Of a stretch of 64,000 nucleotides of DNA, positions 1,144-26,659 are shown piece by piece. The stretch is from Vibrio tarriae. GTDB taxonomy: Bacteria > Pseudomonadota > Gammaproteobacteria > Enterobacterales > Vibrionaceae. The DNA lies in contig NZ_CP022353.1 of the NCBI RefSeq assembly GCF_002216685.1, positions 1,860,001 through 1,924,000 on the forward strand. Reading direction: 5' to 3'. Positions within the stretch are counted from its first letter, which is position 1; each line of letters begins with the position of its first letter. The notes under the pieces are model-generated. The model was not told the origin of the DNA and made no database searches. It worked only from the letters and a program-made list of their open reading frames with translations. The translations under genes were made by a program, and so were the position numbers.

Positions 1144-3357
1144 TCACTTTGCCGCGCCCGATTTCGTCTCTTCGCCATAGTAAGCTTGGTAGTGATAATA
1201 GCCGCTGTAGCGTGAAGCCTTTTTCGCATTAAGACGATTGAGTATCACACCATCAATACGACTGCCCTGCTGAGTCAATTTACCCACCACTTCCCGCACG
1301 ACTGGCGTTCGAGTATGGTTGGCATCAATCACCAAAATCACAGAGTCCACGTATTGCGCCAGCATAAAGCTATCGCTCACCGCGAGACAGGGTGGCGTAT
1401 CAATCACAATGCGTTGATAGCGAGTACGTAAATCGGCCAACAGTTCACTAAATTTGCTCGAAGAGAGCAGCTCTAACGGGTTGGAGGCATAAACACCCGC
1501 AGTGAGAATATCGAGCCCGGATTGCTCATCATGGTAGACGCAATCTTCTAAGCTCTGCGTGCCATTGAGTAAATTGGTGACGCCCGGTTGTGAGCCAGAA
1601 ATGCCAAAACGGTGCGCAATCGCCGGTTTGCGTAAATCACAGTCAATCAACAAGGTTTTTTCCATTTGTGCCAACGACAAGGCCAAGTTCAGGCTAGATG
1701 TCGTTTTCCCCTCCCCGGGCAGACAAGATGTGAGCATCACGACATGCTGATCTTGATTGACATGCGCAAGCAAATAGCTGGTCCGTATCGTGCGCACCGC
1801 TTCGGTTAGCTCACGCAGTTTCTCATCAAAATAGGCTTTCGCATCCAGTTTGCCACGCTGTTTACGCACCACAGGAACAACACCCAATAAACTCAGTGCC
1901 AGCTGTTTCTCGACCTGTTTGATGTCGGCAAAGGTATCAGTCATCGCATCAGCGATAAACGCCACTACACAAGCAAAACCAAACGACACCACAAAGGCGA
2001 GCAATACAATCAACTTTTTGTTGGGTTTACTCGGCGCTAACGGTGCACTGGCTTGATCAGTAAAGCGAGCGATCGTGGTATTAAAATCCCCCGAAGCACT
2101 GGTCTCTTTTTGACGCGCTAAAAACAGGTCAAACAGTTCACGGTTGGTTTGCACTTCGCGCTTAAGCTCAGAATACTTGGCATTTTTTACAGTCAGCGTC
2201 TGAAACTCAGATTTACGCTGATTAAATTCCGTTTGTAATGATCGCTCGGATTGCTTGGCCGCTTGCACCTCGTTGTTGATCCCATTGAGTAACTGCCTTA
2301 GCTCTGCACGCAGATTTTTACGCACCGCTTCTAACTGCGCTGATGCCGATTTCAATTTCGGGTGTTTAGGGCCATAACGCTTAGAAAACTCCGAGACTTT
2401 CCGCTCGGCATCCACTTCTGCGACTTTCAAATCACGAATGGTTGGGTGATTGGAAATTTCAGGAATCGACGACAAAGCCGTCAAGTCACTGTCATTTTTA
2501 CTGTAACTGTTCGCCACTTGATACAACGTTTCTGCCGCCACACGGCGATCGCGTGCTTTGTTCATCTGCGAGGTCAGATCTTCCAACTCTTGCGTTGCGA
2601 GCCCTTCGACACCTTGCACATCAACCAAGCCTTCCGCTTGCAAAAATGCTTGTAACTTAGCTTCTGATTCTCGTAATTGAGTACGCAGCTCTTCCATACG
2701 GGTGTTTAGCCAAGTATTTGCCTTTAGCTCCACCTCTAACTTAGCTTCCAAATGGCTGTCCATGTATACCCGTGCAATCTCATTAGCGATTTTCGCCGCC
2801 AACTTAGGATCACCTGCAGTGTAGTAGATATTCACCAACTGGGTTTTGCGGATCGGGCTAATCTCCATCCCGCGTTTGAACTTATACAAGATCAGTCGAT
2901 TTTGGCGATACGCTTCCAAATCAGGATCGGCGACGGTCTCTTCCTGCTTAAATCCCTGTAGGAATGGCATCCACTCTACCAAGCGTTCTTTTAAGCTTGG
3001 AGAAGCGTCGCTCTCTGGGCTTAAGTCGAATTCTGGATCGGAGGCTAAATCAAGTCGTTCAATGACTTCTTGAGCGATCGTGTCGGATTTGAGGATCTCA
3101 ATTTGGGTCAGGTAATACTCCTGACTTTTGGTATCGAGTCCATACACTTCTTCAATAGATACCGCTTTCGCTTGCGTCGATTCAATCAAAATAGTCGCAC
3201 GCGCTGTGTATTCTGAGCGCATTGAGAGCACGAACAGTAAGGTGATCGCCGTCACCATCACGGAGAAAAGTAAGATGCGCCACTTATAGTTAAGTAGCAC
3301 ATTAAAATACTGACGAATATCGATCACTTCTTCTTGAGTGAATTGTTTACCTGTCAT
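1144..3357 (-). CDS. vpsO: VpsO, Wzc-type polysaccharide co-polymerase / tyrosine autokinase
   Basis: A 737-residue protein with the classic Wzc layout: Wzz domain with first membrane segment near 28-45, a long periplasmic coiled-coil region (about 200-420), a second membrane segment near 445-470, then a cytoplasmic BY-kinase domain. Visible kinase motifs are Walker A (PGEGKTTSS, about 545), Walker A' (LLIDCDLRKP) and Walker B (IVIDTPP). A C-terminal tyrosine cluster (YSGYYHYQAYY, six Tyr) is the expected autophosphorylation tail. It controls chain length and export of the polysaccharide together with VpsN. VpsU, a low-molecular-weight phosphatase at 26156-26659, is the likely opposing enzyme. 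It lies 24 bp downstream of vpsN in the operon. Confidence 0.95.
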   Translation of the reverse strand: MTGKQFTQEEVIDIRQYFNVLLNYKWRILLFSVMVTAITLLFVLSMRSEYTARATILIESTQAKAVSIEEVYGLDTKSQEYYLTQIEILKSDTIAQEVIERLDLASDPEFDLSPESDASPSLKERLVEWMPFLQGFKQEETVADPDLEAYRQNRLILYKFKRGMEISPIRKTQLVNIYYTAGDPKLAAKIANEIARVYMDSHLEAKLEVELKANTWLNTRMEELRTQLRESEAKLQAFLQAEGLVDVQGVEGLATQELEDLTSQMNKARDRRVAAETLYQVANSYSKNDSDLTALSSIPEISNHPTIRDLKVAEVDAERKVSEFSKRYGPKHPKLKSASAQLEAVRKNLRAELRQLLNGINNEVQAAKQSERSLQTEFNQRKSEFQTLTVKNAKYSELKREVQTNRELFDLFLARQKETSASGDFNTTIARFTDQASAPLAPSKPNKKLIVLLAFVVSFGFACVVAFIADAMTDTFADIKQVEKQLALSLLGVVPVVRKQRGKLDAKAYFDEKLRELTEAVRTIRTSYLLAHVNQDQHVVMLTSCLPGEGKTTSSLNLALSLAQMEKTLLIDCDLRKPAIAHRFGISGSQPGVTNLLNGTQSLEDCVYHDEQSGLDILTAGVYASNPLELLSSSKFSELLADLRTRYQRIVIDTPPCLAVSDSFMLAQYVDSVILVIDANHTRTPVVREVVGKLTQQGSRIDGVILNRLNAKKASRYSGYYHYQAYYGEETKSGAAK

Positions 3358-3912: not shown

Positions 3913-5139
3913 TTACATCACGCCCTGTACAGACAGGTAATACACATTTTGACTATAGCTTAGCGAGTCGATATTGGAATCTTTCCGCTCGCGTCCTACA
4001 CCCAACTCAAAGGTGAGCCAACGGCGAAAATCATAGCTGGCACGTAAACTCGCATTGGTAGTTTCATCATCACGATTCGATGCCGTGTAGTCTTCTTCTA
4101 AACGCGTTAATGTCGCTTCGGTAGTCCATTGGGTATTCCAATTGTGTGACCAGTTGACTTGATAGGTCGCTGCGTCAATCGCATCACCATCGCCATCAGA
4201 GTCGGTCGAACGTCGATTGGTCACCAATTGGAGCGCTGAGTAAGTACGGATCAGATAAGTGACATCGACATCCCATGAGAAAGAGTCAAAGTCTTTACGA
4301 TTGGCTGCATCGAAATCTTTTTGCTGGTAGCCGATCTTAGCATTGCCTCGCAACTTACCTGTGGCATCCCAAGAAGCACCTAAATAGCCAAAGTAGTGGA
4401 TATTATCTTTGCTTCTGGCTCCCGGTGCGATCACGTCATATTGACGAGAGTTAGCAATCACTTGCGCGATAAATGAGGTACGCGGTAGTGCCTGATAATA
4501 AAAAGTGGAGTTAAAGCGCAGCTCATCCCAATCCTGATATTGAGTAATGGTGCGGTTATTTTGATAAGTAAAATCTTGCCAACCGATATTGGTTTCAATC
4601 CGGCCAATCGCTTCTGTTGAACCAAAACCATACCCAAGATTGGCACTGTGGCTCTCATATTGGTTGTAATCAAGCCCGAGTGTCGTATCGTTCTCGCCAC
4701 GGCCTTCATGAGCTAAGGCTAAGTTATACTCAAACCCGATGCGGTGGCGGGAGTTCAATTCCCAATCACTAGTCAGATCAAGATAATGATCGGTAAAATT
4801 ATCTTGTTGAGAACTAAAATAGGTTCCGTTACGAAAGCGGTAACCCAACTGGGTTTTGCTGCCTTGCGGTTCGACCATAAAACCGACACCCGATTCAATA
4901 ACCGAGAAGGCCGAACTATCTTGCTGTTGGTTTGATTTGGCCAAGTTATCGTTGTAGCCCGTCGAAAGGTTAAGAAACGGCACGATCGCCATCCCAGATT
5001 CTGTCACGATAGGATTCGGCGTTGGCTTCGCAGCCCCCAATGGCGCATAAATCGCAACCAGCGTGACCAAGCTGGCTGAAAAAAGAGAAGTCAGTTTAAT
5101 CGGTTCCATTTGTCTGCACTTATTTAAATCGATATTCAT
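3913..5139 (-). CDS. vpsM: VpsM, outer-membrane beta-barrel of the VPS exporter
   Basis: A 408-residue protein with an N-terminal export signal (hydrophobic stretch about 15-36), followed by alternating aromatic/polar beta strands typical of an outer-membrane barrel (SAFSVIESGVGFMV, SFSWDVDVTYLIRTY, LTFELGVGRERKD). The C-terminus ends in strand-like residues (NVYYLSVQGVM). Such BBP2-type barrels accompany exopolysaccharide secretion loci. The start may be ATG 5139 or ATG 5109 (the residue numbered 11 here); neither has a strong ribosome site. It follows vpsL by 40 bp. Transport across the outer membrane is inferred from fold and operon position. Confidence 0.88.
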   Translation of the reverse strand: MNIDLNKCRQMEPIKLTSLFSASLVTLVAIYAPLGAAKPTPNPIVTESGMAIVPFLNLSTGYNDNLAKSNQQQDSSAFSVIESGVGFMVEPQGSKTQLGYRFRNGTYFSSQQDNFTDHYLDLTSDWELNSRHRIGFEYNLALAHEGRGENDTTLGLDYNQYESHSANLGYGFGSTEAIGRIETNIGWQDFTYQNNRTITQYQDWDELRFNSTFYYQALPRTSFIAQVIANSRQYDVIAPGARSKDNIHYFGYLGASWDATGKLRGNAKIGYQQKDFDAANRKDFDSFSWDVDVTYLIRTYSALQLVTNRRSTDSDGDGDAIDAATYQVNWSHNWNTQWTTEATLTRLEEDYTASNRDDETTNASLRASYDFRRWLTFELGVGRERKDSNIDSLSYSQNVYYLSVQGVM

Positions 5140-5179: not shown

Positions 5180-6575
5180 TTAATACGCATTCTTTCCAAC
5201 AAATCCTTTAAAAATGGTCAGAAAGACGATTTTCAGGTCAAACCACAACGACCAACGATGGATGTAGTCCAGATCAAACTGTACTCGCTTCTCCATCTTG
5301 TCGAGCGTATCAGTTTCACCACGCCAACCATTGATCTGTGCCCATCCAGTAATACCGGGCTTCACTTTGTGGCGTAGCATGTAACGGTTCACTATGGTGC
5401 GATATTGCTCATTGTGTGCAACAGCATGAGGCCTTGGCCCAACAATCGACATGGTTCCTTGCAACACGTTGAAAAATTGCGGTAATTCATCCAGCGATGT
5501 ACGACGAATGAACGCACCAAACCGCGTAACTCGTGGATCTCCTTTGGTGGCTTGCTGCACATGACTGCCATTATCCATCACTCGCATGCTGCGGAATTTC
5601 CAAACTTGGATCGGTTTGCCATCTAAACCATAGCGGTTTTGTTTAAAAATGATGGGTCCAGGCGAGCTCAGCTTAACGCCAATAGCGATGGCTAATAATA
5701 CGGGGCTGATCAGAAGCAAAATCAAACTGCTCAGCACCAGATCTTCAAAGCGTTTAACCCAGTTAAGTAGGCCATTAAATGGCGTATCAAAAATGCTAAA
5801 CGCGTTGACATCACCAATCGTGTACCAGCGTGAGTGCAGTAAATTAAAAGTAAAAAAGTCAGGCACTATGTAGGTATTGACCGTACTGTCCGAAAACGCA
5901 TCCAAAAATTTGGTTGATACGGCGCTGTGCTTGCATGGGCAAGGCAATGTAAACATTTTGCACCTGCCCAGTTTTCGCAAGACTTAATGCATCATTGACA
6001 TTCCCCAACACAGGCACACCATCTTTAAGGCGTTCAGGCGCACGATCATCATAAAAACCTTGCATCACAATCCCTAACTCAGGGTTTTTAAGCAGATTGG
6101 CAGATAACTCTTGCCCTTGGGTGGTCATGCCAATAATGACCGCTTTCTTGGTGTGCAGCCCCTTTTGGTGCATGTAGTGAATGGTTGCAAACGCTAAGAC
6201 ACGCCAGCCAATCAAACCCAAAAAGACACCAACAAACCAAGCCCCCATTACCATGCGAGAAAACTCAATCCCTGTTTTGGAGAAGTAACCCAATAGGGTC
6301 AAGCTAGCGATGGTCGCCGTCCAACAGAATGCCGTATGCAAAGAAAGTGAACGCAGCTTTGCTGTCCGCCAGCCACTGTAAATATCTAAACTTTCAGCAA
6401 TGTAGGAGTAAAAAAGCACTCCGAGCAGCGCAACCGAAATATAAGACATGGTGACAACATGCTGATTAAACTTAATCGATACATACATAATTACTAATAT
6501 AAAAATGCTATCAATTAATCGGTAGAAGAATTTACCGTGATAGTTAGTAATGCGTATTCTACTTTTTTCCTTCAT
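5180..6575 (-). pseudogene. vpsL: vpsL, initiating undecaprenyl-phosphate sugar transferase, frameshifted
   Basis: This should encode a protein of about 465 residues of the WcaJ/PssY family. An N-terminal half has four membrane segments and a CoA-binding-like fold (KKAVIIGMTTQGQ). A C-terminal bacterial sugar-transferase domain carries FKQNRYGLDG, KFRSM, RRTSLDELPQFFNVL and RHKVKPGITGWAQ. The two halves lie in different frames. Reading from 6575 the N-terminal frame runs to INQI and then ends at 5859 after 24 unrelated residues. The C-terminal frame resumes from LDAFSDSTVNTY. Removing one base from the T5 run (A5 on the plus strand, 5904-5908) joins them exactly, and the total length is one base over a multiple of three. 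ATG 6575 (or GTG 6578) follows an AGGAG. The protein would add the first sugar-1-phosphate to undecaprenyl phosphate, so loss should block VPS synthesis. An assembly error is the alternative. Confidence 0.93.
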
Positions 6576-6829
6576 CACTAGACGCTCCTAACCGATGTGA
6601 GATTTCCCAAAGAATAATTGGAATGTATTAATTATTTTTTAAAGACTACATCTTTATCAATAGAAAAATCTGCGTCAATTCTAAGACTAGCAATAAATAA
6701 AAAATTCAAATAAAACTTATTAAAAAGAGCTTTAATGCATATAAGATTACATTGAAAAATTCATTAAAACAAAATAAAAACAACAACTTAAACAAATAAG
6801 GTTTTTGATTGGCACATTTAATAAAATCA

Positions 6830-9363: not shown

Positions 9364-11658
9364 CTAGTAAACAAACTGGAAGCCTTCAACTAGCCAACCA
9401 CCTGTCCATACATTAATCTGCTTGATGCGTTTCCCTTGTGGCACAGTGTATGTTTCTACTTTTTTATTGGTCGCGTAGTAGGTTGAACCCAGTAACACGC
9501 TAGAGCCATCCTTCATCGTGAATTTAATGGCCACTATGTGATAACCACCCCAGTTATAAAGCCCTGACGTGACTTCCACTGATTGCAATTGATCAAGAGC
9601 AATCGGCGCTCTAAAAGAACCACCATTGGTGCCTTGTACTGGGCCGCCAACCAAATTGCTGGCTGTGGTGCCGATCGCATCGATCGCAAAACCAGAACGC
9701 AGATACATCTGGTTGTCCAACGTCACGACACGTTGAAATTGCTGAGTATTTGAGTAACCGAAAATTGGAGACTCACCACCCACCGCTGCACGCAATGTGC
9801 TTGAGCGATACGTATTATGGCTCAACCAACTTGGCTCAACAAAAGTAGGTAAAGTACCATCCTGATTGATGTTGGTCAGGTGGAAAGCATGCTGGTTCCA
9901 AATTCGAGTTGCATTCTTCCAAGGTTTAGTACTGTCCGCAGATTTGTAGACATACACACCGTGATTAATCGAATATTGGCGATCGAAATCATTGGCTGCC
10001 ACGATCAACTCTGCGTTGTTGTCACCTTCCAGATCGACTACTACTGGGTATTCCCAAAGCGTCGCTGTGGAATGCGCCAGCGACGCACGTTCTTTACCCG
10101 TTTTGCCATCTAACACACGCACACGAGCATGATCTTGCACGAGCACTTCATCGATGCCATCGTTATCAAAGTCATAGGCAGATACACCGATTTTGCCGCT
10201 GCCAGTATCGTCGTTCGCAACAGACCAAACACGCTCACCTTTGCTGTTATACATATCAACGGCGGCATAACCGGCGTAAACAATCCCTTTTACATCTAAA
10301 TCATTGGTACCATTCTGCGCGGCTAACTCAAACTGAACACCGTCCAACAACCAACCCGCAGTCCAAGCTTTGATGCCTTTAATACGGCTACCTGCAGGGA
10401 CAGTGAATCGTTCGGTATACTTGGAGTAGGCATAGTTTTTAGAGCCCATAGAAATCACGCTACCGTTATTCATTCTAAAATTGAGTGCCAATAAATGATA
10501 ACCACCCCAATAGTATTTACCCCAAGTCAGGTCAATCGCTTTAATATCTTTCACATTGACTGGAGAATTCAGGTAACCGCCAGCACCACCAACCAAGTTC
10601 GAGGTTGAAGAGCCGATAGCATCGATCGCATAACCAGAACGCACATAGATTTTTCCATCTACGGCCAAATCAATTGAAGTCGGTTTGTTATTAGGTTGAT
10701 AACCATAGACTTTTGAGAACTCACTCGTTTCAACTGCTTGAGCTTTGCCTAAAAAGTTAGATACCGCCTGCACGCCACCGCCTGGATTCGCAGTATTGTT
10801 GATTTCCCATTTAATGGTGCCATCGTGTTCTAGTACAGCAAAACGAGCGTTATCTCCTGTCGCAAAAGTCGCAGGAACAGAGGCCACAATCTCTGGCTCA
10901 GCATCATTATCTAGGTTGACTAACGAAGAGAACCAAACTGCATCGTTCGCTTGATACTGCCAATTGATCGCACCATTATTTTGAAAGAGAGTACCACCCG
11001 AAAACACTTCTTGTTGCTGATCGCCATCGACATCTACGTTGATGGATGAAGGTGCCCAAGCATGGTTAAAAACGAGTCCGGTGTGGTAGTTATACACACC
11101 ATCAGCAGCCAGAATTTCTACGCTGCCATCATGGTCTAAATCAGCCAACGTGATGTCACCAACAATACGCCAACCACTTTCAGTTGTTGGGATCTGTTTT
11201 TTGATATTGCCTTGGTTATCCAAAATCGTGATAAATTGATCGCGATTGTTGGTTGTCACAATCTCAACAACTCCATCACCATCCAGATCGCCTACGGCTG
11301 GAGAATAACGCGCATCCGCAATCACACCACCATGCGCATAACTCCACAGCTCAGAACCCTCCACGCCACTTAAAGCACGCACTAAGCCGCCATTAGCGTA
11401 TTTGTTTCCTTCAAATGTCACTACGATCAAGTCTGCGACATCTTTTTCATCAATCTTACCATCGCCATTGTCATCATTCAGTTGCGCGACAACAGGCGTC
11501 ACCATCACTTGGTTAGAATTAGGTTGGAAAGCACTGCCTTGCCAAGACCACTTAAGCTCCATGTTGAGTGCCGAACTGTCACCTTGTGTTGTAGCTTGTA
11601 CCACGGTGCTGCTTAACGACAAAAGACCGACAGCAAGTGCAATATATTGAGACGTCAT
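9364..11658 (-). CDS. rbmC: RbmC-type biofilm matrix adhesin lacking the N-terminal M1M2 domains
   Basis: A secreted protein of 764 residues. A signal peptide (about 1-22, VVQATTQ) leads directly into a beta-propeller with FG-GAP-like calcium-binding loops (DDNGDGKIDEKD, DLDGDGVVEI, DLDHDGSVEI, DFDNDGIDEV). One beta-prism is inserted in the propeller (about 300-450; YVRSGYAIDAIGSS, NLVGGAGG, WGGYHLLAL) and a second is C-terminal (about 640-764; YLRSGFAIDAIGTT, NWGGYHIVAI, GWLVEGFQFVY). Two beta-prisms mark it as RbmC rather than Bap1, which has one. Canonical V. cholerae RbmC is about 957 residues, with two beta/gamma-crystallin-like modules before the propeller. Those are absent, and only 263 bp separate the start from rbmB, too little to hold them. 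ATG 11658 has AGGGAG upstream. It anchors VPS biofilm to surfaces. Confidence 0.92.
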   Translation of the reverse strand: MTSQYIALAVGLLSLSSTVVQATTQGDSSALNMELKWSWQGSAFQPNSNQVMVTPVVAQLNDDNGDGKIDEKDVADLIVVTFEGNKYANGGLVRALSGVEGSELWSYAHGGVIADARYSPAVGDLDGDGVVEIVTTNNRDQFITILDNQGNIKKQIPTTESGWRIVGDITLADLDHDGSVEILAADGVYNYHTGLVFNHAWAPSSINVDVDGDQQQEVFSGGTLFQNNGAINWQYQANDAVWFSSLVNLDNDAEPEIVASVPATFATGDNARFAVLEHDGTIKWEINNTANPGGGVQAVSNFLGKAQAVETSEFSKVYGYQPNNKPTSIDLAVDGKIYVRSGYAIDAIGSSTSNLVGGAGGYLNSPVNVKDIKAIDLTWGKYYWGGYHLLALNFRMNNGSVISMGSKNYAYSKYTERFTVPAGSRIKGIKAWTAGWLLDGVQFELAAQNGTNDLDVKGIVYAGYAAVDMYNSKGERVWSVANDDTGSGKIGVSAYDFDNDGIDEVLVQDHARVRVLDGKTGKERASLAHSTATLWEYPVVVDLEGDNNAELIVAANDFDRQYSINHGVYVYKSADSTKPWKNATRIWNQHAFHLTNINQDGTLPTFVEPSWLSHNTYRSSTLRAAVGGESPIFGYSNTQQFQRVVTLDNQMYLRSGFAIDAIGTTASNLVGGPVQGTNGGSFRAPIALDQLQSVEVTSGLYNWGGYHIVAIKFTMKDGSSVLLGSTYYATNKKVETYTVPQGKRIKQINVWTGGWLVEGFQFVY

Positions 11659-26155: not shown

Positions 26156-26659
26156 TTATTGAGATACATTGCCTTTGTGCAGATTGGCTAATCCCTGCTC
26201 TTGCCAAGAATTAACTAACGCAATCGCCCCCAATTCAATCAACAATACTGTACGCTGAAAAAATTCACTGCTGCGCCGATAGGGATCGGGTACTTCTTTT
26301 TCTTGACGATTCGCCTTACTAAGGAAAAGCGCTAACTTGTTTTTATGCTCTGTCGGACAGAGATCAAGCAGATCAGCAAGGTTGGTCTTATCCATGGCAT
26401 AGATAACATCATGCTCGATAAAATCTTGCTGAGTAATTTGCTGTACTGGATTGACGATACAGCTATACCCGTAATGCTTCACCGCTTGTAACGCTTTTCC
26501 ATCCGGCACTTTTTTTCCTGTATTTAGCGTACCTGCACTACGTACTTGGATATTCAACCGTTTCTGCTGGATCTTATCGCGTAAAATAATCTCTGCCATC
26601 GGTGAACGACACAAATTACCCGTACAAACTACCAATACTGAAAAATCTTTAACCTTCAT
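26156..26659 (-). CDS. vpsU: VpsU, low-molecular-weight protein tyrosine phosphatase
   Basis: A 167-residue Wzb-type phosphatase. The P-loop VCTGNLCRSPMAEIIL (about 11-26) contains the CX5R catalytic signature (CTGNLCR), and the general-acid loop appears as EVPDPYRRS (about 125-133). In exopolysaccharide systems this enzyme dephosphorylates the co-polymerase kinase, here most likely VpsO. It is separated from vpsA by 323 bp and may have its own promoter in the region above 26659. Confidence 0.93.
   Translation of the reverse strand: MKVKDFSVLVVCTGNLCRSPMAEIILRDKIQQKRLNIQVRSAGTLNTGKKVPDGKALQAVKHYGYSCIVNPVQQITQQDFIEHDVIYAMDKTNLADLLDLCPTEHKNKLALFLSKANRQEKEVPDPYRRSSEFFQRTVLLIELGAIALVNSWQEQGLANLHKGNVSQ

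What the first reader, a model, noticed from the sequence alone, without database searches (positions are those of the whole stretch)
5904..5908. vpsL is split by a one-base homopolymer expansion
The N- and C-terminal halves of VpsL are both full and well conserved but in different frames. The coding strand has T5 where T4 would restore a continuous reading frame (INQI then LDAFSD). The remnant N-terminal product lacks the whole sugar-transferase domain, so VPS synthesis should fail even though every other vps gene is intact. This could be a natural smooth or biofilm-negative variant, a reversible slip, or a sequencing error. It would be a single-step, revertible switch for the costliest part of the matrix.
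Basis: partly seen in the sequence, partly recalled or inferred. Interest (0 to 1): 0.8.

Follow-up and report, generated by a model that had tools for sequence, protein, structure and literature searches.

The report
Likely assembly error splits vpsL
In this deposited Vibrio genome the biofilm-sugar gene vpsL reads as two pieces, but the same genome also shows single-base breaks in genes that the cell should be unable to live without, so the split is likely a sequencing error and not a biofilm switch.

Summary
In detail: an A5 run lies at 5904-5908 (+), and vpsL reads as a 239-aa N-terminal frame (PF13727) and an overlapping 266-aa C-terminal frame (PF02397), one base out of phase. In 28 of 29 related loci read the gene is one open frame.

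The "revertible switch" reading is not supported. vpsL has 13 runs of 5 or more, and 6 of 9 aligned relatives interrupt this one.

In 1.264 Mb of the same assembly I kept 14 one-base frame breaks, 11 at runs of 5 or more. They split ispE and tmk, each without another whole copy, and also rseP, recG and rnt. Loss of ispE or tmk is lethal by general knowledge, so the assembly must hold residual errors; vpsL fits that class. mutS, mutL and mutH are whole.

Even a real break might leave activity: the C-terminal frame has an ATG behind a strong ribosome-site match, and a WcaJ C-terminal domain works alone in E. coli (PMC4361858, passages). No reads were available.

The parts
5859..6578 (-). vpsL N-terminal frame, 239 aa, PF13727 (accessory domain) with membrane part; its tail after the run is out of frame
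5180..5980 (-). vpsL C-terminal frame, 266 aa, complete PF02397 sugar-phosphate transferase core; its head before the run is out of frame
5904..5908 (.). A5 run (T5 on the coding strand) where the two frames meet with a one-base offset
5954..5956 (-). ATG in the C-terminal frame behind a strong ribosome-site match (predicted start, untested)
   Evidence: -10.1 kcal/mol, best of 8 candidate starts
3913..5139 (-). next gene of the cluster (vpsM position; 408 aa, PF10082), intact
1144..3357 (-). vpsO-type chain-length/tyrosine kinase gene, 737 aa, intact

Best explanation
The one-base frame break in vpsL is most likely a residual homopolymer error in this genome assembly, so the living strain would carry an intact vpsL. 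Shown: the break lies at an A/T run, as do most of the other one-base breaks kept from the same assembly, and those breaks include the only whole-length candidates for ispE and tmk. Inferred: a cell cannot grow without those two enzymes (general knowledge), so at least those breaks are errors, and vpsL, which looks like them and is otherwise under purifying selection, belongs to the same class. Not shown: the reads, which were not available.
For: Survey of 1.264 Mb of the same chromosome against syntenic DNA of the relative G092: 36 candidate rows (17, 10, 9), 14 kept by eye as one-base frame breaks in plausible genes; five of them, vpsL included, are also supported by a third genome, G150. 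Family searches show the gene split in our genome for ispE (whole in 18 of 20 other genomes), tmk (18 of 20), rseP (18 of 20, one of these with a stop counted inside), recG (20 of 20) and rnt (20 of 20); no second whole copy over the family cut-off appears in ours. 11 of the 14 sit at runs of 5 or more; 2.3% of bases lie in such runs. dN/dS of the two vpsL halves is 0.050-0.078 (N) and 0.007-0.018 (C) where computable, as between intact relatives (0.041-0.105 and 0.009-0.033). mutS, mutL and mutH are whole. Long-read assemblies are known to fragment genes by residual indels, largely at homopolymers (PMC12007338, passages).
Against: No reads were seen and the sequencing method is unknown. vpsL's run of 5 is shorter than most of the others (8 of 14 are at runs of 7 or 8). 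vpsL should be dispensable in culture, so a true loss is easier to accept here than in ispE or tmk. The break rate (14 in about 1,000 compared frames) is moderate and some of the 14 may be true; three lie in the last third or less of their gene (cysZ, the AI-2E-family transporter, the 118-aa gene), where natural variation is easier. Five of the 14 (the 258-aa gene, acetolactate synthase, the SirB2-like gene, the AI-2E-family transporter, the 118-aa gene) rest on G092 alone, and G092 shows breaks of its own. dS values are above 1, so dN/dS is rough.
Confidence: 0.79

Rival explanations
1. The break is a real, very recent loss-of-function mutation in this isolate (natural or arisen in culture), giving a strain that would make little or no VPS.
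For: Homopolymer slippage is a common real mutation; vpsL is required for Vps production in V. cholerae (PMC9623500, passages) and deletion strains grow; both halves are still conserved, which a fresh mutation also predicts.
Against: The same assembly carries one-base breaks that cannot all be real (ispE, tmk); no sign of a mutator; no copy of the 239-aa product was found by search (with the limit that sister alleles may be hidden in 90% clusters).
Confidence: 0.15
2. The break is real, but the C-terminal frame is translated from its own start and still starts VPS synthesis without the N-terminal regulatory domain.
For: Complete PF02397; ATG at 5956 with -10.1 kcal/mol pairing, beyond all 18 gene starts compared (best -9.7) and the strongest 5% of 2,000 random positions (-8.4); WcaJ C-terminal domain suffices in vivo (PMC4361858, passages); WbaP N-terminal domain is described as nucleotide-sensing (PMC10942596, passages).
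Against: It needs the break to be real first; the ATG is the best of eight candidates, so partly chance; no expression evidence.
Confidence: 0.04
3. A maintained slippage switch or programmed frameshift at the A5 run.
For: The break is at a homopolymer.
Against: Run of 5 only, 13 such or longer runs in vpsL and 305 in the window; interrupted in 6 of 9 aligned relatives; 28 of 29 loci open in one frame; no in-frame slippery heptamer by eye.
Confidence: 0.02

Closest known systems
Gene-fragmenting indel errors in long-read bacterial assemblies (PMC12007338, passages read)
   Same: One-base frame breaks, mostly at homopolymers, that split otherwise conserved genes, core genes included.
   Different: The sequencing method of this genome is not known here, and no reads were available to check the site directly.
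VpsL / WcaJ family of undecaprenyl-phosphate glucose phosphotransferases (large monotopic PGTs; TIGR03023)
   Same: One half carries PF13727, the other PF02397; the C half alone scores 447 bits against the TIGR03023 cut-off of 410.75, the N half 124.8.
   Different: In the deposited sequence the two domains are not in one frame.
Phase-variable (contingency) surface-polysaccharide genes (recalled kind)
   Same: A homopolymer inside a surface-polysaccharide gene.
   Different: The run is short, ordinary for the gene, and interrupted in 6 of 9 aligned relatives.

Membership tests
Residual assembly indel error | Same assembly breaks genes that cannot be lost | tested here: met
   ispE and tmk split, no other whole copy over the cut-off; that they are essential is recalled
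Residual assembly indel error | Breaks concentrate at homopolymers | tested here: met
   11 of 14 at runs of 5 or more; 2.3% of bases lie in such runs
Residual assembly indel error | Reads disagree with the assembly | not testable with these tools
   no reads held
Large monotopic PGT (VpsL/WcaJ) | PF13727 followed by PF02397 | tested here: met
   (one domain per half)
Large monotopic PGT (VpsL/WcaJ) | One continuous reading frame | tested here: not met
   open in 28 of 29 related loci read
Phase-variable contingency locus | Unusually long repeat tract | tested here: not met
   run of 5; 13 runs of 5 or more in vpsL, 305 in the window
Phase-variable contingency locus | Tract kept in relatives | tested here: not met
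   interrupted in 6 of 9 aligned relatives
Programmed ribosomal frameshift | Split arrangement conserved, with a slippery heptamer | tested here: not met
   28 of 29 related loci open in one frame; no in-frame X XXY YYZ heptamer by eye
Mutator strain | Broken mismatch-repair gene | tested here: not met
   mutS, mutL, mutH whole; other repair genes not tested

The most novel reading that the evidence does not exclude
The break is real and turns a large, nucleotide-regulated VpsL into two proteins: a membrane/sensor half and a free, catalytically complete small-PGT core started at the internal ATG at 5956, a one-step natural deregulation of VPS initiation and not its loss.
Probability: 0.04. Interest if true: 0.5.

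Novelty: not a real feature. Interest (0 to 1): 0.12.

Why it matters
Taken at face value, the sequence would be cited as a naturally biofilm-negative Vibrio. The check shows that gene breaks in this assembly should not be trusted site by site, because it also breaks ispE and tmk. The same quick test (are genes the cell cannot lose broken too?) is a cheap filter for homopolymer-switch claims in other genomes.

Tried and rejected
Same broken allele elsewhere: the N-terminal fragment as query gave only two shorter fragments. The C-terminal fragment gave 8,000 scored relatives (a capped number) of which the best 120 are listed, mostly full-length; one 210-aa entry (P0016, 24 member sequences) begins out of frame at another place and is not this break. 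With clusters at 90% identity, identical alleles of sister strains cannot be ruled out.

V. metoecus OP3H draft (L006/L033) looked at first like a second broken vpsL, but it has three other one-base differences within about 60 bp while its close match G092 is open. Not the same event.

Mutator strain: not indicated, mutS/mutL/mutH whole. Old pseudogene: rejected, purifying selection on both halves (dS above 1, several pairs not computable).

Of 36 candidate rows in the survey I dropped 22 by eye: start-site extensions, stops near the start, dubious reading frames, at least two rows where G092 and not our genome is the broken one (161769, 84587), and two left unclear (171149 and 345637; the first has a one-base difference at a run of 6, in a frame that I doubt is a gene). 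In the part shared by all three genomes, frame breaks supported by both others numbered 5 in ours, 3 in G092 and 0 in G150, so G092 is not a clean yardstick.

Paper searches: 'vpsL, frameshift, Vibrio' (5 papers), 'vpsL, natural isolates, biofilm, loss-of-function' with three of four terms (20 of 55 listed) and 'vpsL, Vibrio, pseudogene' (2 papers) showed no natural vpsL break in the listings; only listings and abstract starts were seen, apart from passages of PMC9623500. One search (essential genes) gave no source that I used, so the essentiality of ispE and tmk is recalled.

Full report
What is there. The window is part of a 3.02-Mb contig of a two-contig, 4.12-Mb Vibrio genome. A scan of named genomes with the N-terminal half returned V. 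metoecus OP3H, V. mimicus CAIM 602 and Vibrio sp. HDW18, and the best-scoring protein for the C-terminal half is named VpsL of V. cholerae; the nearest held genome by vpsL DNA is 82% identical (G150, unnamed). On the minus strand vpsL is in two frames: 6578-5859 (239 aa, PF13727) and 5980-5180 (266 aa, PF02397 complete), meeting at the A5 run 5904-5908 with a one-base offset. TIGR03023 (undecaprenyl-phosphate glucose phosphotransferase) is matched by both halves, over its cut-off by the C half.

Is it unusual? In the genus search 113 of 227 genomes have a match. Of the 29 relatives' loci fetched, 28 have one uninterrupted frame. The exception, the V. metoecus OP3H draft, has three other one-base differences close together. 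The other frames in 26-31294 have near full-length counterparts in G092 and/or G150, apart from the RbmC-like gene and a 167-aa frame at 26156-26659.

Age and constraint. Taken separately, the halves have dN/dS of 0.050-0.078 (N, against L004, L005 and L008) and 0.007-0.018 (C, against L004, L005, L007 and L008); the remaining pairs could not be computed because dS is saturated. Between intact relatives the values are 0.041-0.105 and 0.009-0.033. If real, the break is very recent.

Is the run special? No. vpsL holds 13 runs of 5 or more, including three of 6, and the window 305 (219 of length 5). In the alignment of ten loci, 6 of 9 relatives interrupt the run with another base. This speaks against a maintained slippage switch.

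Is the assembly reliable at such sites? I compared 1.264 Mb of the same chromosome (the window with the 400 kb before it, C2:1-400000 and C2:400001-800000) with the syntenic stretches of G092 and, for part, G150. G092 frames with good matches numbered 365, 327 and 331 (the first counted with stricter filters than the rows). Searches listed 17, 10 and 9 candidate rows. I kept 14 by eye: a 258-aa gene without family match, a response regulator with a weak NosR-family match, rnfG, rnt, cysZ and vpsL; recG and acetolactate synthase large subunit; rseP, ispE, a SirB2-like gene, an AI-2E-family transporter, tmk and a 118-aa gene without family match (names). Eleven of the 14 lie at runs of 5 or more, eight at runs of 7 or 8; 2.3% of bases lie in runs of 5 or more.

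The key control. ispE is split in our genome into frames of 233 and 102 aa, with only a below-cut-off relative elsewhere, and is whole in 18 of 20 other genomes. tmk is split with no other match, whole in 18 of 20. rseP is split, whole in 18 of 20, one of these with a stop counted inside. recG and rnt are split, whole in 20 of 20. In some searches the two exceptions are G094 and G196 each time, which look like error-bearing assemblies themselves. IspE and Tmk are essential in such bacteria (recalled). A living isolate cannot lack both, so this assembly must contain residual errors. About a tenth of bacterial genes are essential (recalled), so two or three essential genes among 14 breaks is about what randomly placed errors would give; true mutations should give none.

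Could the breaks be real and due to a mutator? mutS (889-aa frame), mutL (655) and mutH (228) are whole.

If the vpsL break were real, failure of VPS synthesis would not follow automatically. The C-terminal frame contains an ATG at 5956-5954 whose upstream 20 bases pair with the 16S tail at -10.1 kcal/mol. That is beyond all 18 gene starts compared (best -9.7) and beyond the strongest 5% of 2,000 random positions (-8.4), though it is the best of eight candidate starts, and vpsL's own start scores -7.6. A product from there would hold the whole PF02397 core; the sequence-related solved structures are WbaP and N,N'-diacetylbacillosaminyl-1-phosphate transferase. In E. coli, WcaJ residues 252-464 alone restored colanic acid (PMC4361858, passages), and the N-terminal domain of WbaP is assigned a nucleotide-sensing role (PMC10942596, passages). 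On the other side, vpsL is described as required for Vps production (PMC9623500, passages).

Verdict. Most likely a residual homopolymer error in the assembly (0.79); next, a real and very recent loss (0.15); small remainders for a split but active enzyme (0.04) and for a switch (0.02). The finding is ordinary, with a useful caution about this genome. The deciding evidence, the reads, could not be seen.

Noticed in passing
window 9364-11658 (-): The RbmC-like adhesin is 764 aa against 957 (G150) and 995 (G092 frame): its signal peptide is kept, but the tandem N-terminal module of about 190 aa is absent in frame. By position this would be the M1M2 mucin-binding beta/gamma-crystallin pair described for V. 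cholerae RbmC (PMC10102183, passages). There is no frame break, so it is likely a real domain loss.
   Followed up: partly
G000:C2:548896-549721; 705666-706257; 476404-477749: ispE, tmk and rseP are split in the window's own assembly, so gene breaks in it need read support.
   Followed up: yes
G094 and G196 (relatives): Both assemblies also split ispE, tmk and rseP, so they probably carry many indel errors; their recG and rnt are whole.
   Followed up: no
L006 / L033 (V. metoecus OP3H): Its vpsL frame is interrupted near three one-base differences within about 60 bp, while its close match G092 is open; this also looks like sequence error.
   Followed up: partly
G092:C1 (relative): G092 shows frame breaks of its own against our genome, in genes that look by eye like purN, znuC, ccmA and mrcA among others.
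   Followed up: no
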